Source of the DNA: Lunularia cruciata
Taxonomy: Eukaryota; Streptophyta; Marchantiopsida; Lunulariales; Lunulariaceae
Direction: 5' to 3'
Assembly: GCA_948567375.1 (NCBI GenBank)
Contig: OX419762.1
Location: 53,896,841 to 53,960,840, forward strand
DNA length: 64,000 bases
Positions 1,455-42,242 of the stretch are shown in pieces (position 1 is the stretch's first letter; every line of letters begins with the position of its first letter). The notes beneath the pieces are model-generated. The model was not told where the DNA came from and did no database searches. It saw only the letters and a program-made list of their open reading frames with translations. A program made the position numbers and the translations under genes.

Positions 1455-2815
1455 CAGTACTACAATAATACTGACATTTAATTTTGATACAACCATGGCT
1501 AATCAAGTTAAGCAATTGGAGTAGAGATTGGCTAGCTTGGCTATAACTCAAAGGAGATCAGATTCAAGTGTTGAGGCTTCCACTCTTATGCTGGTGAAAG
1601 AGATGTCCTTGATTTCATGTGTACATCAACAGTGGTAGATGCATTTGTTGCAATGGCTAGGAGTGCAATACATACTCTTGAACTCTGGAGGAGAATCAAT
1701 AGAGTTGGACCTACAAAGAGGAGAGATTGGTAAACAAGTCAAGTTTCCTTAGTCTTTCACACTTTCTATGATACTACAAACAACATTCATGGCTCCCAAA
1801 AGTCATAGCACAAGTGTGGTAGGTGGTAATGGAGTTTAGGATAGACCAAATACTACATGGACACCTACTTTTATTGAAGCTTTGTATAGCATAACATTAG
1901 GGTGGCTTAGTTGATTATGTGCTCCCCTTTGTTCTTAGCCACCAAAATGTTTACACCGGACGTTGACCCAACTCTAGTGGTCCAATTAGATGCCACTTTG
2001 TGATAGTAGGGATGGTATGGTTACTTCCTCTAGTAGAAAGATGGAGCCAACTTGGTTGAGGAGCATGGGATCTATTTTACTACCAATGGCTTGTGGCAAG
2101 CAATAGTTGCTAGATTATAGGAGTCACTTGCTAGATTTGCATTTGAATGAGCTAGGTTTATACTTGGGATTGTCTTATTGGAAAACCAAAGTGATATGTT
2201 TAGTTTGGTTGGACCTTTAAGGAAGGTCTATACACCATAGAGGATATTATTAGCCTCTAATGCTCAACCCCTTAGGTTAAAGAAGGTTGCAATTCTTGGT
2301 CATGAGCTACGGAAGACCAATGTTGAGAGATGTTCACTTTAGAACTAGATATCTCTAAGGAGTGGCTCTACCTAGTACATCACACATGAGGAGCTCATTT
2401 TCCAAATTCAACCCAACTATCTAGTCAATAGTTTTGTTATGAGAACCCATGTCATTGCAATAATAGTAGAGTAATATGATGTGTTAGTTGGTGGAGCAAT
2501 GTTGTGGTTTGTTGCCTTGTAACCTTTAGAAATCACACCTATTGCTTGGAAATATTTGGTAAAGGGATTATGCCTATTGAATTTTTTTGGTGTGATCAAC
2601 ATTGGACTGGCTCCGGTATTACAAATAGACATATAGGTTTAGAGGTACTTATATTTGGAGAGGGATGAGATTGATGAGACTAAGTCTCTATGCATCATGT
2701 GGGACACTTTGTCTACCAGTATCTTGCATTAGAAGTAATGTCAGCAATTAAGGATAACCAAAAGAACCTACCATCATACATTTCCTTGCTAATAGTACAA
2801 GATTCAAAGAAACAT
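1455..2815 (+). pseudogene. Decayed fragment of the DNMT-encoding retroelement (gag linker, protease, start of DNMT)
   Basis: Read on the plus strand, this stretch aligns by eye, with many substitutions and small indels, to 23390-25115 of the large element at 20357-30100. Shared landmarks in the same order are the ATGGCTA start of the gag-protease linker (1495 versus 23408), the protease segment (about 2240-2520) and the beginning of the methyltransferase domain around motif I (about 2570-2760), where a G-rich LELFGG-type segment has decayed. No reading frame stays open. It stops exactly where the LTR of the chromodomain element begins (2816), so that element cut it off. It is therefore a second, much older copy of the same family; gag, RT and integrase parts are not visible here. 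Confidence 0.75.
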
Positions 2816-4370: not shown

Positions 4371-4392
4371 CTGCCTATTGGAAGCTTGATTA

Positions 4393-5099: not shown

Positions 5100-6500
5100 G
5101 ACGTGTTTCTAGATGATCTACCAAAGAGATTACCCTCTGATCAAGGTATGCATTTCAAGATTGAGTTATTGCCAAGGAGTAACTCTAGTGAGTAGACCAA
5201 TCTATTGGCTCTCACCAAAGGAGTTGGAGGAGTTGCAAACAATACTTATAGAGTTGTTGGAGATGGACTTCATACAACATAGTACCTCTCCTTGGGGAGC
5301 ACTAGTACTATTTGTTCCAAAGAAGGATGGAGGACTTCATTTTTGTATTGATTACCGTGGGCTCACTAAGCAAACCGTGAAGAATGCATATCCCTTGCCT
5401 CGGATCAATGACTTGCTTGATCAACTAAGTGGAGCACGCTACTTTTCCAAGTTGGATTTTTGCAGCGGCTACTAGCAAATTCCTATTGATAGAGAGGATG
5501 TGCAAAAGACTACCTGTCGCACAAGGTATGGGCATTTTGAGTGGAGAGTTCTACCTTTTGGACTCACTAATGCTCCAACAGTCTTCATGGATCAGATGCA
5601 TCGGGTGTTGGATGGACTATTGGATTGGTCCGGGGTGGTGTTCTTGGATGATATCTTAATCTAAAGTAAGACAAAGGCAGAACACATGAATCATGTGCAA
5701 GAAGTCCTAAGATGACTACAACAATGAAAATTTTACTGCAAGAAATCAAAGTGTTCCTTTTTGCAAAAGGAGGTTACCTTCTTGGGTCATAAGATCTCAT
5801 CACAGGGGATCAAGATGGAAGAAGAGAAAATCAAGGCCATTACTGATTGGCCTACCCCAAAGAATGCTACAGAAGTACATGTGTTCAGTGGATTGGCCAG
5901 TTTTTACGCTCATGTGGCTGCACCATTGACTGACCTCTTGGGAAAGAACTTGAGCTTCCAATGGACCACCAAGCATGAAGAAGCATTCCAAAAGTTAAAG
6001 CATATGGTGTCTTCAAGACCTATTCTTCAACCATATGATCCTCAACTATCTTGCATGGTTGATTTTGATATTTCTAACTTTACAATTAGAGTTGTGTTGC
6101 AACAAGAATTCTCAGATGGACTACATCCCATTGCCTTTGTGTCTCGCCAACTAAATACAACTGAAAGAAACTACTCTTCTCAAGATAAGGAACAACTTGC
6201 AATGGTATATGCCACCAAGGTATGGAGGCATTATCTCTTGGAGAAACACGTGATCATGTGAATTGATCACAAGCCATTGTTGCAGACCTTACACTTGGAA
6301 CACATGAAGAGTCGGCATCATTGATGGGAAGAGCAATGCCAATTGTTTGACATCAAACTTGAGTACAAACCAGGTCAGTTCCATGTCATCCCTGATGCTC
6401 TATCACGACGACCTGATTTGAAGTCTCTTCCTCTCATCACGGTGACAATTACGACGATGTCAATTGATCCCAAGGTCCATAATGAGTTTTTGTCAACTTT
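5100..6500 (+). pseudogene. RT / RNase H relic of the chromodomain element
   Basis: Reverse transcriptase landmarks occur in order: [60 protein letters not shown] and the catalytic FLDDIL (about 5640-5660; canonical F/YxDD). RNase H follows, with QPYDPQL...MVDFDISN, SSQDKEQLAMVYA and IDHKPLLQTL. Stops (for example after the SGY block and before SKTKAEH) and frame changes show it is dead. The family reaction is synthesis of element cDNA from RNA in virus-like particles. Confidence 0.88.
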
Positions 6501-15718: not shown

Positions 15719-17750
15719 TCAAGAAATCCGCTTACCATATCGCCGATCTCTTTGCTGGTAAGTAACCAATGCAGCTTTAAAATCTTCAGTCTCGAAGTCA
15801 GGCCACAGTATATCTAGGAATATAAATTCTGAATAAGCTAATTGCCACAACAAAAAGTTGCTTATACGTTGCTCCCCACTAGTGCGGATTAGTAGGTCAG
15901 GTTCCTGCAGGGCTCCAAGTTCGCTCATGAATAGCTGTCTTGTAATAGCTGCCTCATCTATGTCCGCAGGATTCAGACGGCCCTCTGCTGCTTGTGCTGC
16001 GAGCTCTTGACAAGCACGAACGATGTCTGCTCTACCACTGTAGCTGACACAAATGTTGATTATCATTCCGGTATTATGTTTTGTACTCTCCTCTGCCCTT
16101 TGAACAACATTTTGCAACGACAACGGCAGAGAGATGATATCTCCGATAAATCGCAGTCTCAGCTTGTTCCTGCAATCAGACGAGTGTGTTTTAGATTCAC
16201 AGATTTGTCCTTCAGGATAACACTCTGGAGGTGCTCCTTCCGCAAACACGGCATACGAACACCACTTTTTTGAGAATACATGAAATGGTATGCTTTCCAT
16301 CACTTGATCTTGGAGCTTATTTAAACAGGCAGATGATACACGACAGATGAAACTCACATTATTATATTTGGCATCTCTGTTTGTAGCTTGCTCTCAAACA
16401 ATTGCATCAAAAACTCGACCTCCATCTGCACGTTGAATGACGATCACGTAACGTTCACCACCGGCTACATGCTTTAAAGATTTCCTAATGACATTCAGCA
16501 CAAATGAGTTGGATATATACGTGAAGGTGGATATCCTAAAAAATTGGTGTAATTTCTCTTTTTTCAGCAGGATCTTCAGGTCAAATACCATCCTTCGGTT
16601 GATCAAGAGAATACTGAGAAACCTTTTGAGGAAGTAAGGGAAAACTGCGAAATGTGAGACTGGCGTGCGAGCAAGGAGTGCTGTAACCTAAGCTGCAGTT
16701 CTGTTCACATCTGCTCTGTTCTTCTGTTCAAAAATCTTAGCGAAGGCTAAAGCGCAAATCATCAAGCAGAAGTTCACTAGCAGATTAGAATGGATATTCT
16801 AAATCTGCTAGAGAGAAAGAGAGAAACGAAGACTCAAAGCTGACATGATCTGCAAGGAGCAGGTGGAGGACGGAGCTGAATGTCACAACCTTGCCCCAAT
16901 ATCAAATAAGTTGACAGTTTGTAGCTTCTTTCTACTAGACCATACAACTGGATTACAAGACAATAAGAATGGAAAAGCAAGTTAATTCCTCAAAGTGCAT
17001 AAATCGACCTGCTCAACTTGATAGCGAATATGAAATAGGGTCAATTTCTATATCAAAATTGAGATTACACACTTGTGGACGTAGCCAATTCTCCGTCGAA
17101 AAAGCGAAAACTGTCAAAACCTGAATGCCCCAGGAACTGGCAAGTTTAGCCACTCTCTTCAAAGCTTCAGCCCCAGCAGCATGTCCAAATCCTGAGTGCA
17201 TTCCTCTACGTTTAGCCCACCGTGAGTTGCCATCCATGATTATAGCCACATGCTTGGGCATCAACTCCGGTCTCAAATCACGTGGCAGAGGTACCTGTGG
17301 GAAATTCTCCTCCCTGCTCTTCGCATCAGCAGGTGACAATGAAACCTGTGGTTTATGGCGTCCACCACGCGAAGTCGTTCTATACTCCACTCCGAACCCA
17401 AAAAACTGTGAGGAGGTCAACTGCCCGAATGAACCCAAAACCTTCATTTTCCTAAAATTCAATCCTTTCCTAGCTAAAATTCCAACCCAAAACCCGACTT
17501 CTACTCTTCCACGATTGGAACTGGAAACTGAAAATCCCTGGGCAACACCACATCGATCCCTACGCCAACTACAGCTCAAACTCCGTCCAGAAAACCCTGG
17601 TGCACTGGTACACCCCGAGCATGACCCTTGGCTATACTGTTCCGCTGTTGCTACATCCGAGCTTCTCGACCCCAAAGAGCTCAAAATCACCCGAGTCCTC
17701 TGCATCAGCAGCCCCATAGCTGCACTGCTTCTCCGCCTCCTCCCTCCCAT
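15719..17750 (-). CDS. CPT: cis-Prenyltransferase (dehydrodolichyl/polyprenyl diphosphate synthase family), probably organelle-targeted
   Basis: It condenses isopentenyl diphosphate in cis onto an allylic diphosphate to make Z-polyprenyl diphosphates. Exons (minus strand) are 17073-17750, 16358-16425 and about 15719/15736-16169. Donors are GTGTGT and GTGAGT, acceptors are TGCAG, and the phases join in frame to about 398 codons. All five family regions are visible. Region I has [17 protein letters not shown], with the catalytic Asp. The others are [22 protein letters not shown] then [23 protein letters not shown]; and [17 protein letters not shown] with WPDF. About 160 residues precede region I and are rich in Arg, Ser and Gly, suggesting a plastid or mitochondrial transit peptide. 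The start ATG at 17750 directly follows an in-frame TGA. After DRRYG the sequence ATG|GTAAGC is a good donor, so a short last exon near 15500 is likely; otherwise the frame stops at 15719. The exact isoform and product length cannot be told. Confidence 0.92.
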
Positions 17751-19374: not shown

Positions 19375-20356
19375 TCACTGCATGCCCCTATACTTGGAGA
19401 CCTTACGACCAGCTGTTGCACTCGCCGCACATCCATGGGGATGGGTAATCAGTCCCTCCAAAACTAAATCCCACGGAAGGTCCGTAACCACGACATCCGC
19501 TATTGTCACCTGATCATCTCGGACCAAATATAAGTCTGCACTAACACATGTTGTATGCAAAGCATACAAATGCTCCCTCCAAGCCAAGTATCCACTCTCT
19601 CGTGCCATAGCAAACCCTATGTCTCTAATGGCATCATGGGTAGTTATCCTTTGTCCTCCAAAAGGACACTGTGTCATGTGGATTGTTGCTGCATCTACTA
19701 TAGAACCACACTCACAAGTGAGTAATGAAGATGTAGATGGGTGGACCAAACCTAGGCAAAACCTCATCATTGTAGAGAAAGTAGTTGGTGCAAGTCGGAA
19801 TGCCCTAATGCATGGTCGAGCTAGGATCCAAGAGCCTACACCCTTGCCAGAGCAAGAGTAAAGATGTGCTCTAGTAGCCTGAGGAATGGACGAGTCGACT
19901 AAGAGAGAATGTAATGTATGCTCACACTGTCGCTCCATCAAGGAAGACTGTAAACCTCTAGTCCAATCTGACGATATTGAAGCAAAAGGTGGAAAATCCT
20001 CCCGTGCTTGTGGGGATGGACTATCTCTTGTCTTCCGCAATAACACCTGGAGAAAAAAGGATCCTTCCTCCACCTCTATCACATAAGTCTCCAAAACCGG
20101 CCTATCATTAACCACAAAAGGAGAGGAAAGTAGGGGTGCCAAGAGAGCACAATTACCCAAAAACACTATAGGTGTCGTCTCCTCCATAGATAGCAAGCCA
20201 ACCCCACCACATGAGATTGGCAAAGCCGCCTATTTATGTGCCAAATCCCTTATCACACACTCAAAAGTCCTTGGTCTAATAATATCACCAAAGACTCCCA
20301 TAATCCTCCTATAAAATGCTCTTAGATGTGAAAGGAAGGACGATGAGGGAGGAACT
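19375..20356 (-). pseudogene. LINE reverse transcriptase, C-terminal part (3' half)
   Basis: This is the minus-strand continuation of the LINE whose 5' part lies at 30101-31652. From the junction it reads VPPSSSFLSHLRAFYRR, then after a stop at about 20232 a 282-residue open frame with ISCGGVGLLSMEE. Near the end comes a Cys/His-rich segment, TCECGSIVDAATIHMTQCPFGGQR followed by HDAIRD, typical of the C-terminal zinc-binding region of this LINE group. It includes the thumb and C-terminal domain but no catalytic residues. A stop codon and its separation from the RT core make it non-functional. Confidence 0.8.
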
Positions 20357-20805
20357 TGTCACGCCATTTGTAGTTCCGCATCTAGATGCTCGGGCACTGG
20401 AGTTCCAATGATGGTAGTTAGAGTTATTCTAGCAGTTTCTCAGGGACTACTTTCCGACGGTTAGATTTCGTGTTCGGGGTACTGACTTCACGGTGGGGCC
20501 CACTGTCACTTTGCACCGTTTGCACCATCGAGTGTGCCGTCAGCGGGACCGTTAGGGTTTCAGGGCTAGCTCAAGTCCAGGGGGTATAGTTTCAAAGTGA
20601 GCTCCAGAGAGCTCACTTCTCTGATGTTGAGCCTTCGAGTTCCTGGCTATGGTGGACAGAGGCCGGCGAGCGTCACCTAGATTCTCTATGCTTGAGTGGG
20701 TGTGGCTTGACTGTAATCAGTGTCCAATTGTTGGCAGTTTATAGAGTGACAGATCAAGTACTGATCTGAGTTGAGTTGAGTGGAGAATGTTAAGCAATCT
20801 GATTA
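20357..20805 (+). repeat. Left terminal repeat (unit B, 449 bp)
   Basis: It begins TGTCACGCC directly after the AACT target copy and ends CTGATTA, where it runs on as CATCAGGG. It matches 29546-29994 over the same 449-bp length with about 19 differences by hand count, 18 of them transitions. Unlike a full LTR it lacks the 105-bp A unit that follows B at the right end. Confidence 0.9.
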
Positions 20806-21986
20806 CATCAGGGAAGTGAAGTCAGGGGGAAATCGGGTGCAGGAACGTTGAGTGTTGGTGGTATCTCCAAGCTCGGTGGATCGTGGTAGCTCAATTCAGG
20901 TTTTGTGTTTCCCTAGTGTGCAGAAGCTTGTGTAGTTGATGCAAATTTGGCAGTTAGGCGGACGGTGTGCGGAAGCGCTGGCCAAATTTTGAGCAAAGAA
21001 AGAGCAATTTTCGAGCAGTATTGTGATTTTGAGCTCAAGAGGTGAAGGCAGGACCAATTTGCTGCGAGTTGGGCTCAGAAAGTGAAATTGAAGGTGGAGT
21101 TGGAAAGCTCTTCTCATGAAATTGTGATTTGGAAAAACCCGTTTTGTCAATTTGGCTCGAGTGGAAAGTTAGCGGGGGATTTGGCGGACATCCATCTTTA
21201 GGGTTTATGTCAGATTTTCGGCATTTCGAGGCTTCGAGGCATAGGGCTGTGGGCTAGAAGGGCCAAAAGGGCCAGCAAGCCAGCTTGCTGGCGCGAGGCT
21301 AGCTAGTTTAGTGTAGATCTTGGTCATTGGTTGGCAAAATCTGCCTTTCTTGCTAGATTGTGCGCAACAAGGTTTGACCCCTAGATCTCTTGTTCCTAGA
21401 CTGGTGCCCTAGCCAACTGGTCCACCCTCACTTGTTGTCATAGTGACTGTGCCACTATTATCTATACACATGTAGCTTTGGCTAGGAGAGGCAGTTTGAT
21501 CCCATTCTTGGTGATCCTGGTAGCTTAGGACTTAGATACAAACTACTCTTATGTCAAATGCCAAATGGTGGCAGAGTCAGTCCCGTGTTGTGTTATGAGA
21601 TGGAGGGTTTTCGTTTAGATTTCTTGTGATTGGATCCCCTCCATTCTCTGCTTCCTGTTTGTGCACCACGTTTGTGTGAGGTGCCCTAACTTTTGAGCGT
21701 TGGTGCTCTGGTGTGCTCTCGGTGGTGAGGCTGGAGTGATGACCAGTCAGACTACCTTTGTTTCTCTCCGGTGAGGCAAGAAGTGATGACTTGCAGACCG
21801 TGAGAGTGCGTGTTATGATGGCAGGTTACAGGTTGCCTTTCCCCTAGTGTAGTTATCTCGGTTAGAGTTACATTAGTGGGTGGTGTTTAGTTGGTGTTGG
21901 CATGTGGTGGTATTGGTACTTGGTGGGGTACTTGCGGTTGCGACTTGCGGTTGTAGTTGGTGGTTCGGGTTTGTTGTTGTAGTTAC
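20806..21986 (+). other. Leader of the DNMT retroelement, candidate primer site at 21566
   Basis: About 1.2 kb with no convincing reading frame lies between the B repeat and the gag start. A clear tRNA primer site is not found next to the repeat. TGGTGGCAGAGTC at 21566-21578 matches 10 of 13 bases of the Met primer TGGTATCAGAGCC and is the best candidate, but it is about 760 bp from the repeat. Open stretches here are G/T-rich and without motifs. Confidence 0.4.
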
Positions 21987-23335
21987 ATGGTCACGACGGA
22001 GTTCTTTGGAGATTCCAGAGGAGTTAGCCCTGCAGTATGGAGTGGGTTTACTCGGAGTGGTGCTCGGTATCAGCCTGTATCTCAGGTCCCAATGAGGGAG
22101 GAGATTGACTCTGAGTTGGAGTTCGACACAGGTGCTGATTCAGTTGAGAGTGCACTTGGTGTGTCCGCACCGTTGTTGTGGGACATGGACGAGATTTATG
22201 GGGCCTCCAAAGGCCTTAGGCGTTACTCTGGTACAGTGGGTACCATTGAGTTGGATGACTTCATCCAAGAGTTCAATAGTTGGTGTGATCTACAGCAGAT
22301 GCGGAACCCGACTTTGTTCACACCCTTCATGGCATGGAAGGGGTTGTTTTAGCACTTGGAGGGTCCACCGATAGATGACTACCATGAGTTCAAGAGAGCT
22401 CATTTGGAGGAGATTGAGTTATGGAGATAGTATTGGTCTCCACACTATGTCTCCATCACTTCAGGCTTGGTGGCCAGGAGTAGATCGGCTGTACCCACGA
22501 GTTCTAGCTCGAGTAGTGTTGGTGGAGCTAGTGGAGGTGCACTAGCTGGAGATAGTGCTCCTACGAGTGGAGGTACCGCTGCCGGAGGTGGTGTGGTACC
22601 GGGGTTTAACCCCATGGTTGAGTTCTTCCTATGTTGAGGCAGAACTACCAAGGAGTGCGGACTGACAAGCTGAGGAGCTTGCAAGAGTTCCAGCGGAAGG
22701 CTGGAGAGAGCCTACGCGAGGCATATACTCGCATGAGGCGGCTGATCAGTTTCACTCAGGGAGTTACTGAGGCCCAGGCAGTCCAGTTTTGGTATGGGAT
22801 ACTGGACAGGGAGTTGCGACGTAGAGTTCGTGATGCTACATTGTTGCATGCTACTTCGCACACTTTGGCAGTAGTCTTTGGTTTGGCTAAGCATATTGAG
22901 CTCAACATGGTGGAGGAGAGAGTGGTGACAGCTGGATTTGGTAGGGAGACCTCATCCACGGTTGTGACTTCTTCTAGAGTGCAGCAGAGTGCACCACGCC
23001 CAGTTGGTTTTCGAGGACAAGGTGGACAGCCCAGATCCTATGGAGCGAGTGGAGGGCCTAGTGGAGTTAGACCCTTACCCTCATTTTTGGGTCAGCAGCA
23101 GCTAGTGAGTGGTGGTGTTGCTTGTTGGACTTGTGGTGGACCTCACCATAGGAGAGAGTGTACTCAGGGCAGCGGACCTGATACCTCTGGTGCATCAAAG
23201 CCAGCACAGAGGCAGTGTGAGCATTGCCACAGATTTGGTCACACTAGTGACCGGTGTTTTGACCTACACCCGGAGTTATGGAGTGGTAGGGCTGCTATGG
23301 CAGGTAGTAGAGGAGCTCCAGTTCATGGAGGATGA
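21987..23335 (+). pseudogene. gag of the DNMT retroelement, two CCHC-type zinc knuckles
   Basis: It starts at ATG 21987 (MVTTEFFGDSRG), chosen because the homologous-looking acidic segment follows in frame. A capsid-like helical part follows (DDFIQEFNSWCDLQQM; later KLRSLQEFQRKAGESLREAYTRM and EAQAVQFWYGIL). A Ser/Gly-rich linker lies at about 22490-22610, with a frameshift near 22620. At the end come two knuckles: CWTCGGPHHRREC (C-x2-C-x3-H-x4-C) and CEHCHRFGHTSDRC (canonical C-x2-C-x4-H-x4-C). In-frame stops: TAG at 22350, TAG near 22430, TGA at 23333; the first would be CAG (Gln) and the last CGA (Arg) before a C-to-T change. It packages element RNA in the family. Confidence 0.85.
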
Positions 23336-24860
23336 GGTGGTAGAGGTGGTGGTAGAGGATCTACACCTAGTAGGGTTGCAGTACCTGCCCTTACTTCTGA
23401 CACAGCTATGGCTACTCGAATTGAGCAGTTGGAGCAGAGATTGGCTAGTATGGCTATTGCTAAGAGGAGATCAGATTTGGGTGCTGAGGCTTCCACCTCA
23501 TATGCTGGTGATAGAGATGCTTTGGACTTCATGTGCGGAGCAGCACAGGTGGATGCATCTGCAACAGTGACTAGGAGTGCAGTACGTGCTCCAGAGCCTA
23601 GAGGAGCATTAGTGGAGTTGGACCCACAGAGAGGAGAGGTTGGGAGACAGGTCAGACTTCCCCAATCTTTCATGCTATCTGAGGCATTACAGATGACATC
23701 CATGGTTCCTAGACGTCCCAGTGTAGGTGTGGTAGGTGGTGATGGAGTACCTGCTAGTCAACCACTTGCTACTACACAGACTGAGTCTAGCATGATGTTG
23801 GGGGCGGCTCAGCTGATTATGCGGCATCCTTTATTTTCAGCCAGTGACATGTTTACATTGGGAGTTGACCCAGCCCTAGTGTTCCGGTTGGCTGCCACGT
23901 TGTGTGAGAGTAGGGATGGTGCAGTTCCTACTACTAGAGCAGAGGTGGTTGGTAGTGGAGCTGACTTGGTTGAGGAGCATGGGATCAGTTCAGCGACTAG
24001 TGGTTTATGGCAGGCAGCAGCGGCTAGACTAAAGGAGTTGCCAGCTAGACCGGCCTTTGAGAGAGCGCGGTTTACACCTGGTGTTGTCCTATTGGATAAC
24101 CATAGGGGGATCTTTTGTTTAGTGGGACCTTCAGGGAAGGTCTATACACCACAGAGAGTCTTGTTAGACTCTGGTGCGTAGCCCCTTATGTTGGGGAAGG
24201 CTGCAGTTGTCGGTCTGGAGTTACGGAAGACCAATGTGGAGAGGTGTCCATTTCAGATCCAAACATCTCTTAGTGGTGGTTCGACACAGTACATCACACG
24301 TGGAGACCTTGTTGTCCAGGTTCAGCCTGGTCATCCGACTGATAGCTCGGTGGTGAGAGCTCAGGCTATTGCGATGATAGCTGAGTCATATGATGTGCTA
24401 GTTGGGGGAGCAGTGTTATACCCTATGGGTTTCAGCATTAACTATTGGGAGGAGACAACCTCTTATAGACCTGGTTGGCAGTCTGGTGAGGGATGGGTAT
24501 GTTGCCTACCAATACGCTTCAGTAGTGGCAGTCTTGGCTCACTACAGTTCGGGACCATGGCAGCATCAGTTTAAGCTTTCAGCGGTGCAGTTACTTGGCC
24601 AGGTGACTTGTTGGAGGGGAACGTCCCTGCAAAGGATACTCCAATACCAGAGGAGATCACTCGGCTATGGAGTACGAGTGGGATTGTTCCATCCACCTTG
24701 GATGTTCCTTTGTGGAGTTCAGAGGAGGCATTGCAGCAGCATGCGGATCAGTTGGTGCAGTAGGCTTGGAGTGGAGCCTTCGTACCATCAGGGGATGAGT
24801 GTGAGGATGAGCCTCCAGAGGCGATTGCTTTGACACCTCTAGATACCACACTCATTGCTT
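23336..24860 (+). pseudogene. Aspartic protease and linker of the DNMT retroelement
   Basis: It continues the gag frame after the TGA at 23333. An RG-rich tail and a coiled-coil-like start (RIEQLEQRLASMAIAKRR) lead to the protease: VLLDSGA, a TAG at 24179 where Gln is expected, then PLMLGKAAVVGL, the flap-like ITRGDLVVQV and the closing hydrophobic-Gly block YDVLVGGAVLYPMGF. D-S-G-A is the catalytic triplet of retropepsins. A double frameshift lies at about 24490-24580, and an acidic linker (PSGDECEDEPPEAIAL), with a TAG at 24761, leads into the methyltransferase. The protease would mature the polyprotein. Confidence 0.82.
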
Positions 24861-25860
24861 GGCAGTATCCAGTAGAGGGGATATGCCTATTGGAGTTGTT
24901 TGGTGGGATCAGCACCGGACTAGCTACGGTGTTACAAGCGGGTATCCGAGTACAGAGGTACTTGTATGTAGAGAGAGATGAGACTGCTAGGTGAGTCTCT
25001 CTACATCATTTGGCACACTTGGCCTATCGGTATCCGGAGTTATTACCGATGTCTGCAGTCAGAGGTTACCATAAGGCCTTACCAGGAGACATTTCCTTAC
25101 TGGGGGCGCATGACCTAGAGAGACATGGGCCTGGTGATTTTTGCACATGTATGTCAGGGACATACACGTGCGGGCCGCGGTTTGGGTCTTCAGGATCCTC
25201 GTTCTGGTGTGTTTTGGGAGATGTTACGGATACTACGACATCTCCAAGTTCATCAGTCTGTTTCTCTAGCTTACCTTTTGGAGAACATTCCTTTGATGGG
25301 TGATTCTCGCACTAGAGTGGTGGCGAGTACACATCAGGTCCATTCTTGGATGGGACCTGCTGTATTGTTAGATGCAGCCAGAGTGGGATCACGGGCTCAT
25401 CGTCTTCGTCTTTGGTGGACAAACCTTTTACCCAGAGAGGTTCTACAGCGTAGTTATGATAGGATTCAACGACTTGACCACATCCTTGTTGATGATATCT
25501 TGGATGTTGGGCGTCAGTCTCAAACAGTGGTAGTGGCTGATAGGTCACCTATGGCAGTGGTGAACCTAGTTGGACAGCCTAGAGCTGCATTTCCCACACT
25601 CATGAGTTTCCCAGGCTCTCATGCTTTTTGAGAGGGAGAACCTGGACTTGTTTGGGACTCATAGTTACAGCAGTTGGTGGAGCCCAATGCTGATGAGAGA
25701 GAGCGGGCGATGGGTTTTTGCACCGGTATTACCGTTGTTCCAGCAGTGTCAGAGGCATCCAGGCGTTAGGTGTTAGGTCAGGCTATGGACCTGAACTGTT
25801 TGACCTGGATTGTGAGCCTTGGTTTGGCAGAGCAGCGTAGGATGCACTTGATAGGCATCA
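24861..25860 (+). pseudogene. C5 cytosine DNA methyltransferase domain inside the retroelement polyprotein
   Basis: It transfers a methyl group from S-adenosylmethionine to cytosine C5. The conserved motifs appear in canonical order: I, LLELFGGISTG then VERDETAR (24883-24991); IV with catalytic Cys, VIFAHVCQGHT (Cys codon 25152-25154); VI, LLENIPLMG (ENI at 25281); VIII, LLDAARVGSRAHRLRLWWTN (about 25365-25425); IX-X, EPNADERERAMGF and VLGQAMDLNCLTW (to about 25810). The AHRxRxWWTN block and the LELFxGIxTG motif resemble DNMT3-type enzymes; plant DRM enzymes have motifs in permuted order, so it is not DRM. The Pro before the catalytic Cys (PCQ) is read as Val here. Lesions: TGA 24992, a frameshift near 25120, TGA 25629, TAG about 25665 and 25767. 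It is in frame with the RT downstream. Confidence 0.88.
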
Positions 25861-27989
25861 CCACTCGGACACTTGTGAGCCTTGTGCCTATCAAGACGAT
25901 TCAGGCACATGCTGGGGGCGATGGACCGAGTGGACATGGTATTCTTGGGACACATCCAGTAGCTACTAGGGAGAGTGGTCTACTTGGAGTCCATCCAGGT
26001 GAGCGTGGGCTACTTGGATTACACCCTTGGTCCACATGGGATGCAGCCAGAGGACGTATGGAGCTTGCAGCCAGAGTGGAGGGAGTTTTTCACACAGAGG
26101 TTGGGACCTCTAGTGGTCGGGAGCATGACACCATTGCTCCCAAGGGCCCAATGTAGCAGCCAGTCAGTACGTCTTCCACTCCTACTACAGTTACAGAGGA
26201 TACTTGGGAGCCAGATCTTGGACCCAAGCTTACTGGAGAGGAAAGACGGAGGGTTTGGAGGTTCTTGAGGAGTCACACGAGTTGTTTTGCCTTCAATATG
26301 AAGGATTTGGGTGCTTTGAAGGGACTTGGTATACGGATTGAGCTGACTAGTGACACACCAGTTTTCCGACGTCCTTATCGATATAGTGAGATGGAGAGGA
26401 CATTGATTCAGAGCCAGAGTATTGACCTTTTTGAGGCTGGTTTGGTGGAGATTTCACATGGAGAGTATGCATCAGCGACAATGATGCCAACCAAGAAGGA
26501 TATGCATGGCAACTATACAGATAGGCGGATGTGTGGAGATTACCGTCCTATCAACCGACAGACCAGGGCTGATTGGTATGCCATGCCTACACCGGAGGAG
26601 ATTTTTGATGCGATTGGGCATGCAAAGGTCTTCAGTACTTTGGATCTTCGAGCGGGATATCATCAGTTGCTGATCAGGGAGGAAGATAAGTCCAAGACAA
26701 CATTTTGGGCTATTGATCCTCATGGCAAGGATGTGTTATATCAGTGGAGGTTCTTACCATTTGGGTTGAAGAACGCTCCTGCTGAGTTCCAGAGGGTCAT
26801 GGATAGGATCCTAGGTGGATTGGATTTTGCTCGGTGTTATATTGATGACATTTTGGTCTATAGCACTACTGTGGAGGAGCATGAGAGACAATTGTTGGAA
26901 GTGTTTGAGAGGTTGAGATCTCATGGACTCAAACTACATCCTGGGAAGTGTAGGTTCTTCCACGAGTAGGTTGAGTATTTGGGTCACACTATCTACCCCG
27001 GAGGACTTGGTGTTCAGCAGACCAAGGTGGATGCTATTGCACGTATTCCTCGGCCTACGGATGTGAGCAGAGTGCGAGCATTCCTTGGGTTGGTGAACTT
27101 CTATCGCCGCTATGTTAGAGGATTTAGTGCCATTGCCAAGGCCTTGACAAAGCTGACCAAGCTTACACAGGAGTGGTGTTGGGGAGATGAGCAGGAGAGA
27201 GCTTTTGTAGAGCTCAAGGAGAGGTTGACATCTGCTCCTATTTTGAGGAGACCGATCAGGGGACGACCATTTCAGGTTCACACTGATTGGAGTATGTTGG
27301 GGCTTGGAGCGGTGCTCACCCAGCATGATGATGAGGAGAAGGAGTTTGTGGTGGCCTATGCTAGTCGCTCCAACAATTCAGTGGAGGCAAAGTATAGTTC
27401 ATATGAGGGAGAGTGCTTGGCAGCAGTTTGGGCAGTAGCACATTTCCGATGTTACCTATTTGGTAACCCCTTCACTCTCATCACTGATCATCAGCCACTG
27501 AAGTGGTTGATGGAGTCCGACAAGCTTTCAGGGAAGCTTGCACGATGGGCTCTGATTTTACAGGAGTATGATTTCATGGTTGTTCACAGACCTGGAGTGG
27601 TGAACCGTGATGCAGATGGGTTGAGTAGAAACCCATGTCCCAGCCAACAGGATCAGACCGGAGCACGTTGGCATGGTAAGACAGATGAGGAGATGGTGCC
27701 AGGTTGGCATGCATCGGCCTTTCTGTGTATATTTGCAGAGACTTTGGTGGTATCTCTCTCAGCGCATACAAGAGGAGTTATTGAGGTCACAGATCCAGAG
27801 AGTGAAGATATTGGTACAGTTCAGCGAGACATTCATGATGATGTCTTAGTGATGGACTATCTTTGCACTGGTGTTGTGGGTGGCACAGTTGGGGCCAAGG
27901 AGAGAGACCGTGTTCTTCAGCAAGCCAGACGGTTCAGATTGGAGGGTAGACACCTTTTGCTGTATGGGAGGATGGTAGAGTGCGAGTAG
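25861..27989 (+). pseudogene. Reverse transcriptase and RNase H of the DNMT retroelement
   Basis: In the same frame as the methyltransferase. A linker with repeated LLGVHPGERGLLGLHP ends at TAG 26154 (Gln expected). RT follows: RPYRYSEMERTLIQSQ, MCGDYRPINRQTRADWYAMP, FSTLDLRAGYHQL, FLPFGLKNAPAEFQRVMD and the catalytic YIDDILVYS (26838-26864). TAG 26967 interrupts at the palm-thumb border. Beyond it are YLGHTIYPGGLGVQQTK, RAFLGLVNFYRRYVRGFS, then RNase H with VHTDWSMLGLGAVL, YEGECLAAVWAV and LITDHQPLKWL, so D-E-D are present. Both domains are otherwise unusually open for this window. The class is Ty3/gypsy. The frame ends at 27989 through a frameshift into integrase. Confidence 0.93.
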
Positions 27990-29124
27990 TACCACTTCCA
28001 TCACAGAGACTACAGTTGGTCCGTCATGCTCATGAGGAGCTAGGACATTTTGGAGTAAAGCGTACATATAGCTTACTTTAGAGTCATTATTGGTGGCGCG
28101 GTATACAGACCGAGGTACAACAGTTTGTTGCCAGATGTATGGTTTGTGACCGAGTTAGAGCATCATTCAATGCTCCTACGCCACAATTACACCCATTACC
28201 TATCATGGGATTGGGTTACCGTTGGAGTTTGGACTTCGCCGGACCTTTACCGCTGACTGTGAGACATCATCGGTATGTTTTGGTGATGGTGGAGCACTTC
28301 TCCAAGTGGATTGAGTTGGTGGCACTTCCTGACAAGTCTAGTGAAGGGACAACTTACTCATTCCTGGATCAAGTTCTTAGTCATTTTGGTGCACCAGTTG
28401 AGGTTTTGACTGATCAGGGTACAGAGTTCTTGGGAGAGTTTCAGGTCTTGTGTGACAAGGCTTTGATTGATCATCGTACTACATCCCAAGATCACCCTGA
28501 GGCAGATGGCTTAGCAGAGAGAGTGGTTCAGACGGTGAAGAGAGGATTGCAAAAGTATGGTTTGCAGAGAGGCCACTTGGGAGATTGGGATCTCCAGTTA
28601 CCTTGGTTGGCCATGGGCTATTGGTTCAGCCGGCAAGCCTCCTTAGCATCCTTCTCTCCATACTTTCTACTCTATGGACAAGATCCAGATTTACCTGCAG
28701 CCATTCGTCGAGATGCTACTGTAGTTTTGGACTTGGATGACCCCAATGTATGGATGAGCGCATGTTCTCAGCGGGCAGAAATCTTTCGGAGAGTGATGCC
28801 GATGGCCTTTGAGAACTTGGCGATTGCTCAGCATAGAGATACTTTACGCTATGCTACCATTCGAGGAGGAGGTTATAGACCCTTGATCCGTCGATTTCAT
28901 CTAGGCGACTATGTATATCTACAGCAGACAACACCGACGACACTTGATGTTTCTATAGGCCGCACTATCTTGAGAGTGCGCGAGGTTTTGCCATCTGGAG
29001 TCCTTGTGTTAGAAGGACGTGATGGTGTTGTTTGGAAGGATCATGTGCGCAATTGTGCGCCATGCCACCTTCCAAACATTGATGGTACTATGGACCCAAG
29101 CTTGGCACTTGTACGTGCAGGCTT
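27950..29124 (+). pseudogene. DDE integrase of the DNMT retroelement
   Basis: In frame 2 from about 27975: HAHEELGHFGVKRTY, a TAG at 28078, then VARCMVCDRV form the HHCC zinc finger. The core has RWSLDFAGPLP (Asp), VLTDQGTEFLGEF (Asp) and HPEADGLAERVVQTVKRG (Glu), so all three catalytic acids are retained. The C-terminal part (FHLGDYVYLQQ...ILRVREVLPSGVLVLEGRDG) is the GPY/F-like DNA-binding module and continues directly into the PHD finger. The open run from 28139 to the stop at 29267 is 376 codons. Integrase-type insertion is supported by the 4-bp target duplication around the whole element. Confidence 0.92.
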
Positions 29125-29269
29125 GAGGTGTATGTTATGTGGCTCTTCTGGTGGAGCTGCTACTATGTTAGTGTGTGATAGCTGTTCGAGAGGATGGCAT
29201 ATGGCATGTATGACTCCTCCCCTCACGGTGGTTCCTCAGGGACAGTGGTTATGTCCTAGATGTACTTGA
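29125..29269 (+). pseudogene. PHD finger fused to integrase C-terminus
   Basis: The last 48 residues of the integrase frame contain eight zinc ligands in PHD order: C-x2-C (CMLC), C-x2-C (CDSC) after 11 residues, H-x2-C (HMAC) after GW, and C-x2-C (CPRC) preceded by the conserved Trp in QWLCPRC. The GWHMAC signature and the W two residues before the final Cys pair are typical of PHD fingers, which read histone H3 tails. Chromoviruses have a chromodomain in this position, so a reader-for-reader replacement is the natural inference. The domain is intact in this copy; it ends at TGA 29267. Confidence 0.9.
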
Positions 29270-29426
29270 CCTATAGCTAGTTCATTCTTTATATGGTATA
29301 GATTGCAGACAGGCGACTAACAATGGGGCTCCATAGCACCCGGCCTCCTGATCTTTGCCCATTAGAGGGTATACCATATACTTAGAGTAGATGGCTATCT
29401 GGAGTTAGAGGGACCTAACCGCCAGC

Positions 29427-29437
29427 TAGGGGGGCGA
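29427..29437 (+). other. Polypurine tract of the DNMT retroelement
   Basis: A run of TAGGGGGGCGA ends one to two bases before unit A (TGTGGCAC at 29439). It is placed where plus-strand priming is expected. No purine tract precedes the B repeat at 29546, which is why the A unit, not B, looks like the start of the 3' repeat in reverse-transcription terms. Confidence 0.6.
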
Positions 29438-29438
29438 T

Positions 29439-29543
29439 TGTGGCACTTTAGAGTCTATGTATGACTTATGTGTGAGTTGTGCTTCTATAGTGTATGATGT
29501 TGACAGCGATGTATGTTGTGTAGCGATGTATATATGCATGACA
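29439..29543 (+). repeat. Unit A (105 bp), internal copy
   Basis: It starts TGTGGCACTTTAG and ends GCATGACA. It matches 29996-30100 with three differences. It ends against the B unit through TGACA-GC-TGTCA, a 12-bp palindrome that looks like two LTR ends joined head to tail with a 2-nt spacer. Confidence 0.9.
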
Positions 29544-29545
29544 GC

Positions 29546-30100
29546 TGTCACGCCATTTGTAGTTCCGCATCTAGATGCTCAAACACTGGAGTTCCAATGA
29601 TGGTAGTTAGAGTTATTTTTGTAGTTTCTCAGGGACTACTTTCCGACGATTAGATTTCGTGTTCGGGGTACTGACTTCACGGTGGGGCCCACTGTCACTT
29701 TGCACCGTTTGCACCGTCGAGTGTGCCGTCAGCGGGACCGTTAGGGTTTCAGGGCTAGCTCGAGTCCAGGGGGTATAGTTTTGAAGTGAGCTCCAGAGAG
29801 CTCACTTCTCTGATGTTGAGCCTTCGAGTTCCTGGCTATGGTGGACAGAGGCCGGTGAGCATCACCTGGATTCTCTATGCTTGAGTGGGTGTGGCTTGAC
29901 TGTAATTAGTGCCCAGTTGTTGGCAATTTATAGAGTGACAGATCAAGTACTAATCTGAGTTGAGTTGAGTGGAGAATGTTAAGCAATCTGATTATTGTGG
30001 CACTTTAGAGTCTATGTATGACTTATGTGTGAGTTGTGCTTCTATAGTGTATGATGTTGACATCAATGTATGTTGTGTAGCGATGTATATATGCACGACA
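29546..30100 (+). repeat. Right terminal repeat, units B plus A' (555 bp)
   Basis: TGTCACGCC...GCACGACA, with TGTCA/CGACA ends. The first 449 bp (B, 29546-29994) match the left end of the element, and the last 105 bp (A', 29996-30100) match 29439-29543. It is directly followed by AACT, the target-site copy. It looks like one complete LTR, whereas the left end holds only B. Confidence 0.9.
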
Positions 30101-31652
30101 AACTGTGTGGATGAGGTAAGATGAGCAATACTAGAGGAGAGTATACCAAATGCCACCTGTGGATCTCCTAATAACGGAAGGTCATCCACATGGAGAACAT
30201 CCTCTGCAAGGGCAGCATCTAAGAAGCATATGACAAAATCCTCCAATCCTACTAGCACCCCAAGAACACGAAGTCCATCTATGGATGTGATACACCCCTC
30301 TAGAAGCTCAAGGTGGACAGGGATACCTAAAGAGAACCATGCACTACACTTTGACACCTTGATTCTCAAGCTTATTAGATGTAGCTTGGTAGTCAAATAG
30401 TCAAAGGCCTGCCTAATCTGATCTACATGGCCTACGATGTGTGTATCATCTGCCACGGAGGGAAATACAACACCTAGCATGGCCAAAGTAGTAGATAAGA
30501 GAGCTCTAAAGTGAGCCATGGCAAATAAGGGCCCTCCCAAAGGATCTCCTTAATGTGTACTAACAACTGACTCCAAGACGGTGACTCCTCCTATGGACCA
30601 CCATGTTGGTAGTAAAGAGAAGCAAGAGAGCCATAAAAAGACCGTACAAAAGGAATGAGACTTGCCAAGGATCCATCAACCTCCCTAAGACATAGGAATG
30701 TCTCCTCTCACTACTATTGTAGCCACTTGAAACAACTCGGGAAAACCACTAGAAGGATCATCTGCTTGGAAGCAATCTCTAAGGTGCTCATAAACCATCC
30801 CTGACAAGCCTCCTGACGAAAGGTGAGGGGTAGTGCACAATGCTTGTGCAAATAGCAACCTATCAAGACATAAAGGAACCTTAGGTTGATAATCTAAGAC
30901 CTCTAGTGGTAGTCTCTCTACTATTTAGGATGCAATGAGCATAGGGAAGAGATAGTCTCATCAGTAGGACTTGCCATAGACAAAGGGTGTAGGGCTCGTG
31001 CCGCTCTACTAAACTCTCTTGCTTGACCCAATGTCCTACACCGTCATAATCGAGTGGACTCTATGGTATCCTATGGCAATGCATGTCTCCTAAATTATAT
31101 AGCCCTAATAGATTCCTCCTGAAGGGTTGCCCAATCCCCCGCTTGGAATCGACAAAATCTAGCAGCCACCTCTCTATGCCCCACATATTTCCCTCTAGCA
31201 TAGCAAAGACACCATCAAGGGAGTAAGAGGAATAGGAACCATACTAACTCGTCCAATGATCACGTACAAAATGATCAAGTGGTAGGCAAAAAGCATGTCT
31301 AGCCTCATCATGAAGTGTGCAGGATAGCCTATGGAATAGACGTGGACATGGAAAACTAGTCTCAAATGACCCCAAAATGCAACCCACTTGAGAAGCTAAC
31401 AACTCCCATGACTCGATCGGTATCCTTGGAACAATCAACAAAGGGATAAAAGAAGCGTGAGTAATCTTGAGTGTCATTGCTATCAATGTGGTTGCTCGTC
31501 TCATGTGTGCCTCCCAAGTGGTCCAATCATAGTCCTTGTGCATCCTTCCCACATGGGTCTTTACTCCTTGCAAGGTAAAGCGTCGGTGACACATCGGACA
31601 TGGTGTATCCCGAGTCGCTCTAGGCGATCCCACATGGGAAGGTGTATCCATG
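30101..31652 (-). pseudogene. LINE ORF, N-terminal C2H2 finger and RT core (5' half)
   Basis: Minus strand. It starts at ATG 31652 (MDTPSHVGSPRATRDTPC). A C2H2 finger, CPMCHRRFTLQGVKTHVGRMH, lies at about residues 18-38. The frame breaks at about 31244. Further on are PHLSSGGLSGMVYEHLRD (RT motif 1-2 region), STHQGDPLGGPLFAMAHF and the catalytic VADDTHIVG (about 30440-30470). These are RT motifs of a non-LTR retrotransposon. The RT ends at the AACT junction and continues at 20356. Many frameshifts and stops are present. No endonuclease domain is recognisable. The group cannot be named beyond LINE. Confidence 0.82.
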
Positions 31653-40073: not shown

Positions 40074-42242
40074 TCAAACACTGGCCTTTGTACTTAGCAT
40101 CGCGTTTACTCTGAGGACTATCTCCTGCAATGGCTCTAATCTTGTCTTCCTTTCTCGTTCCCGATCTGCAAGCCATTCCTCTCTGTACATCGCCAACTCT
40201 TCTTTGAATTTGGCCTTCACCGCGTCCTTCTCTTTCTCCTTCTGTGCAACCTTTTCTTCCTGATTACGAAGTAAGTCTCGTAATCTCTCTTCTTCTCCAT
40301 ATCTCGTAGCCAACTCTCGCTGCCAGAGTTGCTTCTTCTCCTCCATACTCTCCATCACTCGATCGAGCTCTTGATCCTTTGATGCTACTCTCGCCATAGC
40401 ATGGATGAGCTCTACTCTTGAATCAGCAAACTGTTGCTTCAAGATTTCAAATTCAGCTACTTGTGTCTCCCTTGCGACATCACTCTTCCTTGCAAGATCC
40501 TCTCGATAGCTCAATTCTCTCCTCAGGTCTTCGATTACCTGACTTCTCTCCACTGCCTCCAATTGTAGTACTTCTCTCTCCTTCTCACCTCGGGTCATAC
40601 TCTTCTTCAACTCCGAGTTTTCTTCTTCTAATCTTGCCAACACCTGCAATACAGTCTTTACCTCCGGACATGTGGACTGCATCTCCTTCTTCTTATGTTC
40701 TAACTTTACTAACAACGGACACACCACTTCCCGCAGGTACTCCACTCCATCACTCGGGATTACTTCTTCTCGTGTGGCTACTTCTCTTTGTACTTCGTGT
40801 TCATCCGATACTTCCCTTCTTCTCTGCAGTCTTCGTATCGGAATTGATGCTTCACTGCCTGAGCTTCCTTCTACTTCTTCTGTCACTCTACTTGGTCCCG
40901 CTTCCCCCTTCGCCTTACGTCTCGAGCGAATTCCTCGCTGTACTGCGATCTTCTTCTCCTTGAGCACCGGTACTTCATCTTCCAGCGCTGCATTATCTTT
41001 GGCTTTTACCTCGGCTTGAATTTCTTCTTTGTATTCTTCAGGCGTTGGTGCCGAGGTCATTTCTCCACCGACTTCACTATCACTGCTTGTATCTCCACTC
41101 TGCAGTGTCAGCTCAGGTTCCTCCTCATGTTCCGAGTCCTCCGTCTTGAGCTCGGCTTCGCCTTCAGAGTCTTCATCTTCCGACTCAATCACCACCATTC
41201 CTCGCCTCGGGTTATTTTTTTGCATCTTCCGAGGTTTCTTGTTTTCTTCAGCGTCTGCTTGCCGAGTTCTCTTCTTCGTCGGGTTACTTTCAACGACCTC
41301 CACGTTCTTCCCTGTCTTCGAGTAGTAATCGTTTGCGCTCCGGATTTGGAGAATGTATTGCTGCTCCTCTGCGTCGACTTCCTTTCGCACATCCGGATGG
41401 AAGTGCGACACCATCCGATTCCGCTCTGCCGAGTTCAGTAAATTGAGCCCGAGATAGAAATGCGCTGCAAACGGCACAATATAATGTGGAGGGGACTTAT
41501 CCCGCAGATTCCACACCATCTGCCTCGTTCTCCCGTGAAAACACCTCGCCCAATTAATTGGTTCTCCTGCAAACAATTTGTGAAAGAACACCGCTTGGTG
41601 TTTCATCACATAGGTAGTTCTCTCCGGCTTCAGGATTGCCATCAAAGCACTCACAATTCCTCTCTTGACAGGGTCTTTGTAACTTTCTACCTTGTACCCA
41701 TTCTTTGTTCTCTTCGACGAGAAGGCATCTCTCACCTCCTGAGTTTCTTGGGCTATCTCCCCTTTCCCCAAGAACGTGGCCCCCTGCTCCGAGCCTGCCT
41801 CCTTCCCGAGTACGAGTCTCCAATCCGACTCTGTCCAGCGAGCCGGATTTCCTCTCTTCCCTTCTTCCTCGGGACCATCGAGACATTTACTCTCGATGAT
41901 TTCTGTCATGAATCCTGGAAAAATTATGTTCCAATTCCATGCCAGAAAGGTGATCCGAAGTCGGCTCAAGACTTCGATCCTCGCTACTACATCTAATCTC
42001 CGAATTGCATGATTTCTCACTGCAAATTTGGAGTTCTTCTTCCCTCCCATCTCTTCTGCTTTCTTTCGGTCTCTCGATTTCTCTCTCTCGACTTCTCCCT
42101 TACGCACTAACCCGAGGCCAACGTTATGTCCCTTTCCCCGATCACCTGCAAGACGACTCCTCAACGGCGAAGGAAAATTGCTTGACATTTCGTCGTTGCA
42201 GTTTTGATTTTTATAGAGTTGCACTTCTTCGTCTTCCGTCAC
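40074..42242 (-). CDS. Intact 722-codon ORF, retroelement-associated protein of unknown function
   Basis: The longest uninterrupted ORF in the window, on the minus strand inside a block inserted in a dead gypsy element. The N-terminal part is basic (EREKSRDRKKAEEMGGKK). Residues about 90-330 look globular, with INWARCFHGRTRQMVWNLR followed by PPHYIVPFAAHFYLGLNLL; this resembles ORFs found in plant repeats (plant mobile-domain or gag-like proteins), although I cannot name a family. A bipartite basic stretch (KKRTRQADAEENKKPRK), an acidic region (about 350-430) and a long heptad-type coiled coil (about 520-720) follow. There is no RT, integrase or transposase motif. Its openness and retained CG dinucleotides suggest recent insertion or selection. 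Whether it is expressed is unknown. Confidence 0.6.
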   Translation of the reverse strand: MTEDEEVQLYKNQNCNDEMSSNFPSPLRSRLAGDRGKGHNVGLGLVRKGEVEREKSRDRKKAEEMGGKKNSKFAVRNHAIRRLDVVARIEVLSRLRITFLAWNWNIIFPGFMTEIIESKCLDGPEEEGKRGNPARWTESDWRLVLGKEAGSEQGATFLGKGEIAQETQEVRDAFSSKRTKNGYKVESYKDPVKRGIVSALMAILKPERTTYVMKHQAVFFHKLFAGEPINWARCFHGRTRQMVWNLRDKSPPHYIVPFAAHFYLGLNLLNSAERNRMVSHFHPDVRKEVDAEEQQYILQIRSANDYYSKTGKNVEVVESNPTKKRTRQADAEENKKPRKMQKNNPRRGMVVIESEDEDSEGEAELKTEDSEHEEEPELTLQSGDTSSDSEVGGEMTSAPTPEEYKEEIQAEVKAKDNAALEDEVPVLKEKKIAVQRGIRSRRKAKGEAGPSRVTEEVEGSSGSEASIPIRRLQRRREVSDEHEVQREVATREEVIPSDGVEYLREVVCPLLVKLEHKKKEMQSTCPEVKTVLQVLARLEEENSELKKSMTRGEKEREVLQLEAVERSQVIEDLRRELSYREDLARKSDVARETQVAEFEILKQQFADSRVELIHAMARVASKDQELDRVMESMEEKKQLWQRELATRYGEEERLRDLLRNQEEKVAQKEKEKDAVKAKFKEELAMYREEWLADRERERKTRLEPLQEIVLRVNAMLSTKASV

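What the first reader, a model, noticed from the sequence alone, without database searches (positions are those of the whole stretch)
24861..25860. Cytosine DNA methyltransferase built into a Ty3/gypsy polyprotein
Seen: C5-MTase motifs I, IV, VI, VIII and IX-X in canonical order between the protease and RT, and in one shared reading frame with RT from 25125 to 27989 (interrupted only by stops). Known: retrotransposons carrying DNMTs have been reported for charophyte algae and dinoflagellates. Inferred: this is a related but possibly undescribed lineage in a land plant, able in its active form to methylate its own cDNA or its insertion site.
Basis: partly seen in the sequence, partly recalled or inferred. 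Interest (0 to 1): 0.95.

Follow-up and report, generated by a model that had tools for sequence, protein, structure and literature searches.

The report
Jumping element carrying DNA-methylating enzyme
A many-copy jumping gene in what is probably a liverwort carries its own DNA-methylating enzyme of the DNMT3 type, and its end sequences suggest that it re-enters the genome from a DNA circle, a route usually regarded as a dead end for related viruses.

Summary
A decayed C5-cytosine methyltransferase lies between protease and reverse transcriptase of a Ty3/gypsy element (20357-30100). The window copy alone scores weakly (Pfam E=0.0035, under cut-off); relatives settle it, and sequence and fold place it nearest DNMT3. 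It is no one-off: relatives occur in Marchantia, Calypogeia and Sphagnum, and 20 same-genome copies (picked by the enzyme) all hold it 624 nt before RT. Two named green algae carry it after RNase H instead. A PHD finger ends the integrase.

Two things are new here. A TAG conserved in 20 of 20 copies, in a leaky-stop context, separates Gag-PR-methyltransferase from RT-integrase-PHD, so the enzyme is probably made with Gag. And the repeats are A-int-B-A-B, as reported for charophyte KnitGypsy-Dnmt3: 25 of 29 testable copies have exact 4-bp duplications at the A and B ends. Self-priming site and polypurine tract define the reverse-transcribed LTR as B+A, so the integrated form equals a 2-LTR circle opened at a palindrome inside one LTR. 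I infer a circle-junction pathway with a DDE integrase. Self-methylation of cDNA is untested; CpG content gives it no support. A new land-plant variant of a known kind.

The parts
20353..20356 (.). target-site duplication, left (AACT)
20357..20804 (+). repeat A1, starts TGTCAC (5' end of the element)
   Evidence: 95.8% identical to A2; layout; 4.2% diverged
20613..20627 (+). self-primer sequence inside A1, candidate start of R
   Evidence: complement of the PBS: 15 of 15 nt to the commonest PBS, 14 of 15 to this copy's own; RNA fold pairs it with the PBS
20805..20819 (+). primer binding site
   Evidence: same 15 nt in 26 of 31 copies read; this copy differs by one
22100..23330 (+). gag with two CCHC knuckles (broken frames); bounds approximate
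   Evidence: weak Retrotrans_gag E=0.0093, below cut-off
24150..24480 (+). protease, DSGA motif at 24167; bounds approximate, no Pfam match in this copy
   Evidence: (no match); aligned to Marchantia P0009 PR region
24863..25841 (+). DNMT3-type C5-cytosine methyltransferase, broken (one frame change, four in-frame stops)
26154..26162 (+). conserved in-frame TAG followed by CAGCCA (leaky-stop context)
   Evidence: TAG in 20 of 20 copies; CARYYA after it in 19 of 20 and in the window; background 297 of 100806 places
26265..26966 (+). reverse transcriptase
   Evidence: RVT_1 3.1e-27
26979..27620 (+). end of RT and RNase H
   Evidence: RT_RNaseH 1.6e-36
28139..29080 (+). DDE integrase core and C-terminal part
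   Evidence: rve 4.5e-13
29126..29266 (+). PHD finger at the integrase C-terminus
   Evidence: PHD 2.6e-11; CHD4, KMT2D and PHF21A fingers among nearest structures
29428..29436 (+). polypurine tract AGGGGGGCG
   Evidence: directly before B1 in the copies printed
29437..29543 (+). repeat B1
   Evidence: 97.2% identical to B2
29539..29550 (.). palindrome TGACAGCTGTCA at B1|A2, the inferred integrase site; 2-nt spacer GC at 29544-29545
   Evidence: sequence; spacer of 2 nt in 36 of 36 junctions read
29546..29993 (+). repeat A2 (self-primer copy at 29802-29816)
29994..30100 (+). repeat B2, ends CGACA (3' end of the element)
30101..30104 (.). target-site duplication, right (AACT)
1478..2723 (+). 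second, older fragment of the same family: PR region and methyltransferase motif I
   Evidence: 72% over 1478-2503, 74% over 2512-2723; translation

Best explanation
A decayed copy (A1/A2 4.2% apart) of a high-copy self-primed Ty3/gypsy family of a bryophyte. SHOWN: Gag, PR and a DNMT3-type methyltransferase precede a conserved in-frame TAG; RT, RNase H, DDE integrase and a PHD finger follow; repeats are A-int-B-A-B with TG..CA ends and 4-bp target duplications. INFERRED: (1) Gag-PR-MTase is the main product and RT-INT-PHD a read-through product, so the methyltransferase is Gag-level in particles. (2) The RNA starts at the self-primer inside A; reverse transcription from the PBS and the polypurine tract makes linear BA-int-BA. 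(3) Its ends are joined to a 2-LTR circle (junction A|B). (4) The integrase cuts the palindrome CA-GC-TG at B|A inside the LTR that precedes the leader, giving recessed CA ends with 2-nt overhangs at once, and inserts A-int-BA-B. (5) The methyltransferase acts on the cDNA or circle in the particle, or on chromatin at the site; the PHD finger steers the integrase to histone H3 tails. Step 5 is the least supported.
For: Methyltransferase. Family: 123 PF00145 matches in the genome (2161 candidates, 123 scored, a few of them host-like exons by eye); MTase and RT 624 nt apart in 20 of 20 copies, PHD in 19 of 20. TAG: 20 of 20, CARYYA 19 of 20. Layout in 40 copies: BAB at 36 of 40 3' ends, lone A at 33 of 33 5' ends read, TSD 25 of 29. 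A|B junction exact in 34 of 37; the three others carry +G, +A and +ACATC, the last being the first five PBS letters, as left-over primer copy would give. Self-primer: 15-nt exact complement, control maximum 11 in 1225 internal 15-mers; folds pair it in 2 of 2 copies tried, z about -2. Precedent: foamy-virus integrase cuts the palindromic 2-LTR junction after CA on both strands with 2-nt overhangs, and 36 of 40 of its junctions were exact (PMC1180852, section 8); HIV-1 integrase similar (PMC1905944 abstract).
Against: A 2-LTR circle has two identical B|A sites; cutting the other gives A-BA-int-B, seen in 0 of 33, and I cannot explain the bias. No circle, RNA or protein was observed. Four of 29 copies lack a TSD. 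L045/L046 ends in B alone and its 5' end was not found. CpG is not depleted relative to flanks. Selection on the MTase within the genome is not significant by the shared-versus-single test (p=0.19; RT p=0.011); pooled dN/dS 0.43 against 0.25 for RT-RNase H and 0.54 for integrase. Copies share descent, so conserved features are not independent events. TMV-type CAR-YYA leaky-stop rule is recalled.
Confidence: 0.72

Rival explanations
1. DIRS-like templated copying: the RNA spans A1 to B2 and the inner B1A2 is used to complete both ends, so A-int-B-A-B is copied as such and the A|B junction is inherited, not made anew by end joining.
For: Explains the constant orientation (33 of 33) and the mostly exact A|B junction (34 of 37); same layout as DIRS-type elements (PMC5890265 legend).
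Against: Rve integrase, TG..CA ends and 4-bp TSDs; polypurine tract exactly before B and PBS with self-primer exactly after A are ordinary LTR signals; the +ACATC junction equals PBS letters.
Confidence: 0.2
2. The layout is secondary: ordinary LTR elements rearranged by recombination between tandem or nested copies.
For: One tandem BABBAB copy exists (L013/L014).
Against: Same boundaries in dozens of dispersed copies, with different exact TSDs at those very ends (25 of 29); repeats of one copy only 0.2% apart (L027).
Confidence: 0.04
3. The methyltransferase is a passenger or chance insertion without function.
For: This copy is broken; within-genome selection test for the MTase is not significant.
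Against: Same domain in three bryophyte genera, two named green algae and many unnamed metagenome proteins with GW[P/E]CQ and EN motifs mostly kept; MTase and RT trees split at the same place; 10 of 18 ungapped copies have no stop in it.
Confidence: 0.06
4. The enzyme methylates RNA or host DNA rather than the element's own cDNA.
For: de Mendoza 2018 raise RNA methylation for the LINE type (discussion); no element-specific CpG loss.
Against: Nearest relatives by sequence and fold are DNMT3 DNA enzymes.
Confidence: 0.2

Closest known systems
KnitGypsy-Dnmt3 of Klebsormidium nitens (de Mendoza et al. 2018, PMC5890265)
   Same: Gypsy Pol, Dnmt3-related methyltransferase, DIRS-like repeat layout stated in the Fig. 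4 legend.
   Different: Charophyte, not land plant; the text read names no PHD (0 hits), no TSD, priming or stop signal; I found no Klebsormidium-named protein, so kinship is untested.
SymbioDIRS-Dnmt3 / SymbioLINE-Dnmt of dinoflagellates (same paper)
   Same: Retroelement with a methyltransferase; DIRS type has A-coding-B-A-B repeats.
   Different: Tyrosine recombinase or LINE machinery; here rve integrase and 4-bp TSDs.
Green-algal RT-RNaseH-MTase-INT-PHD elements (Haematococcus P0053, Monoraphidium P0045, unnamed metagenome proteins)
   Same: Homologous methyltransferase; RT clade neighbour; PHD at the integrase end in P0053 and many others.
   Different: Methyltransferase sits after RNase H; here before RT. 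Ends of those elements not seen.
Tf1/Sushi and plant Tcn1 self-primed gypsy elements (PMC6317226, passages)
   Same: Self-primer in the LTR, PBS right after it.
   Different: Ordinary LTR layout and chromodomain; here split repeats and PHD finger.
Foamy virus and HIV-1 integrase cleavage of 2-LTR junctions (PMC1180852, PMC1905944)
   Same: Palindrome cut after CA on both strands with 2-nt overhang.
   Different: There the palindrome is the LTR-LTR junction; here it lies inside the LTR and the junction is elsewhere.

Membership tests
Ty3/gypsy retrotransposon | domain order PR-RT-RNaseH-INT with rve integrase | tested here: met
   for RT, RNase H, rve; PR by motif only
Ty3/gypsy retrotransposon | two like LTRs at both ends | tested here: not met
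   A at the 5' end, B-A-B at the 3' end
Ty3/gypsy retrotransposon | short target-site duplication with TG..CA ends | tested here: met
   4 bp in 25 of 29 testable copies
DNMT3 family | nearest match by sequence | tested here: met
   DNMT3A 1.8e-20, DNMT3B about 1e-17, DRM 1.9e-9, HaeIII 2e-7
DNMT3 family | nearest fold | tested here: met
DNMT3 family | clade membership in a tree with DRM, DNMT1, CMT | not tested
   tree had one long-branched DNMT3A row only
DRM (rearranged DNMT3) | permuted motif order | tested here: not met
   motif I before IV
KnitGypsy-Dnmt3 | DIRS-like A-B-A-B repeats on a gypsy Pol with Dnmt3 | tested here: met
   against the legend
KnitGypsy-Dnmt3 | sequence kinship and domain position | not testable with these tools
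   no Klebsormidium-named protein
DIRS/tyrosine-recombinase elements | split direct repeats | tested here: met
DIRS/tyrosine-recombinase elements | tyrosine recombinase, no TSD | tested here: not met
   rve and no phage-integrase family in the eight pieces scanned; 4-bp TSDs
chromovirus | chromodomain at the integrase end | tested here: not met
   PHD and no chromodomain family in the integrase piece
Tf1-like self-priming | PBS complementary to the LTR | tested here: met
   folds 103, 104

The most novel reading that the evidence does not exclude
An LTR-type retrotransposon lineage whose normal integration substrate is a 2-LTR circle: the integrase site has moved inside the LTR, so only a circle (or LTR-LTR joint) gives its A-int-B-A-B form, and it packages a Gag-linked DNMT3-type methyltransferase that could mark that circle before it enters the genome.
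Probability: 0.5. Interest if true: 0.92.

Novelty: new variant of a known kind. Interest (0 to 1): 0.82.

Why it matters
DNMT-carrying retrotransposons were reported from charophytes and dinoflagellates; [quoted passage not shown] A high-copy, recently moving family in a bryophyte makes the question testable in an experimental land plant: why would a mobile element carry the very enzyme that silences mobile elements? Separately, whether 2-LTR circles can be integration substrates has been argued since foamy-virus work; here the integrated structure itself seems to demand one.

Tried and rejected
First idea, that the extra LTR piece at 29994-30100 marked one odd 2-LTR-circle insertion: rejected when the same layout appeared in 36 of 40 3' ends. 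CpG depletion as a sign of self-methylation: nothing. CHG in the old fragment is low (0.22), fitting decay after insertion only. RT open frames of about 1037 aa (27 of 150 rows) first looked like MTase-RT fusions; one search shows that length fits RT-to-PHD after the TAG, so they say nothing about the MTase. Viral contigs: P0047 found nothing; A3 found 28 MTase loci (27-53% identity), which I did not pursue. Four further stretches for copies without a 5' A gave no A or leader match. The paper search for circle-integrated gypsy gave no such report in the listings. No library match to a phage integrase or chromodomain was seen in the pieces scanned.

Limits: copies were picked by methyltransferase matches; the 20 pol stretches were chosen for long open frames, so their intactness is biased. 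MTase tree used 78 of 99 database proteins (those with a span of about 290 aa or more) plus one copy of this genome and DNMT3A. Domain orders: 28 front, 48 rear, 23 methyltransferase only, of 99.

Full report
OBSERVATION. The six-frame reading shows methyltransferase motif I in frame 1 and the later motifs in frame 2, between a DSGA protease motif and RT. Pfam alone is weak: DNA_methylase E=0.0035, 17.2 bits, cut-off 22; nothing for the N-terminal piece; RVT_1 3.1e-27, RNase H 1.6e-36, rve 4.5e-13 and PHD 2.6e-11 are clear. Against solved structures the C-terminal piece finds DNMT3A at E=0.0034.

RELATIVES. The protein search gave 45 hits (E up to 10), among them Calypogeia fissa (70% identity), Marchantia polymorpha (65%), Sphagnum troendelagicum and S. 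jensenii, and Monoraphidium neglectum. A second search gave 44, with Haematococcus lacustris named (only the 7995 candidates sharing most words were scored); a third 14. Of 99 proteins, 28 have the methyltransferase before RT (PR-MT or MT-RT), 48 after RT or before integrase, 23 show it alone. The labelled groups fall on two sides of one branch in the methyltransferase tree (100/100; 19 front, 44 rear rows of 80) and in the RT tree (99/97; 6 front, 20 rear of 27). So the simplest history is one methyltransferase lineage travelling with its element and one change of position; the root is not secure, the only outgroup rows being long-branched.

THE GENOME. The window is G000:C12:53896841-53960840 of a 566-Mb, 74-contig assembly; 123 PF00145 matches were scored of 2161 candidates. 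A few best ones (L001-L004) look by eye like host DNMT3, DRM and CMT exons. RT search: 150 matches scored of 36625 candidates, all 94% or more identical. Twenty pol stretches, chosen for long frames, all have MTase, RT and integrase; PHD in 19. Host: probably a liverwort, judged from relatives only.

TRANSLATION. In 20 of 20 copies the linker between methyltransferase and RT is 624 nt, same frame, with a TAG at codon 105 (index 104); the window has it at 26154. The next six letters fit CAR-YYA, the leaky-stop context of tobamoviruses (recalled), in 19 of 20 and in the window; this pattern occurs at 297 of 100806 places. A 1428-aa frame at two MTase matches and a 1037-aa frame at 27 of 150 RT matches fit Gag-PR-MTase and RT-INT-PHD. 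Read-through is inferred; internal initiation is possible.

REPEATS. and one search showed A-int-B-A-B. In 40 copies (window, 19, 20 more): 36 with BAB at the 3' end; 33 with a 5' end, all lone A; TSD exact in 25 of 29 with both ends read (misses L017, L027, L041, L119; 11 not testable); spacer at B1|A2 two letters in 36 of 36 (GC 25, AC 5, GT 3, AT, GA, AG 1 each); A|B joint exact in 34 of 37, else +ACATC, +G, +A; PBS the same in 26 of 31. The commonest PBS is complementary over 15 of 15 letters to A; the longest complement among 1225 internal control 15-mers was 11. RNA folds of two copies pair the start of R with the PBS in minimum-energy and centroid structures. A1 and A2 differ by 0.2-10.1% in 27 copies, window 4.2%; 305 transitions, 35 transversions.

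MECHANISM. A polypurine tract right before B and a PBS right after A make B+A the LTR of reverse transcription; its outer ends (ATTGTGG....CTGATT) lack the TG..CA that the genomic ends have. The genomic ends lie inside this LTR, at a palindrome CA-GC-TG. Cutting after CA on both strands yields both processed ends with 2-nt overhangs, as shown for foamy-virus integrase (section 8 of PMC1180852). The A|B joint is then the circle joint; its PBS-derived +ACATC variant fits end joining. Unexplained: only one of the two equal sites is used (0 of 33 of the other form).

SELECTION. Pooled NG86 dN/dS: MTase 0.43 (18 copies), RT-RNase H 0.25 (17), INT 0.54 (16), PHD 0.37 (19). Shared against single variants: MTase N/S 1.19 against 2.07 (p=0.19), RT 0.54 against 1.56 (p=0.011), INT 1.64 against 2.74 (p=0.34). 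The long-term case rests on conservation across bryophytes and algae.

METHYLATION. CpG observed/expected is 0.45 in the element, 0.46 and 0.36 in the flanks, 0.09 in the old fragment: no element-specific sign of self-methylation.

LITERATURE. PMC5890265: parts 1 and 2 of the full text, sections 9 and 11 and passages. PMC12344493, PMC6338049, PMC6317226: passages. PMC1180852: abstract and section 8. PMC1905944: abstract. All else: listings. Searches for a land-plant DNMT retrotransposon; only de Mendoza 2018 matched the narrow terms. Most subscription papers are not in that library. PMC6338049 already mentions green algae among hosts of methylase-bearing retrotransposons.

Noticed in passing
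1478-2723: Second, much older fragment of the same family (72-74%) with PR region and methyltransferase motif I; CpG O/E only 0.09.
   Followed up: partly
19375-20223 and 29992-30540 (minus): Flanking minus-strand ORFs look by eye like parts of one LINE-type element (an ADD motif on the right) split by this insertion; no Pfam match.
   Followed up: partly
3600-6300: Another decayed gypsy element with an unrelated RT (used as outgroup).
   Followed up: partly
15719-17750 (minus): Exons of a cis-prenyltransferase host gene (Prenyltransf 2.2e-49 and 2.6e-20).
   Followed up: no
40074-42242 (minus): 722-aa open frame without any Pfam match, in a stretch of strong GC skew.
   Followed up: no
L013/L014: Copy with a doubled 3' end (B-A-B-B-A-B), about 710 bp repeated.
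   Followed up: no
L046: 3' end consisting of B alone ending CGACA, no A2-B2; 5' end not found within the 9.9 kb looked at. Could be a one-LTR product.
   Followed up: partly
P0047, P0062, P0069 C-termini: Algal relatives carry a further conserved region after the PHD finger that resembles a Tudor-like fold by eye.
   Followed up: no
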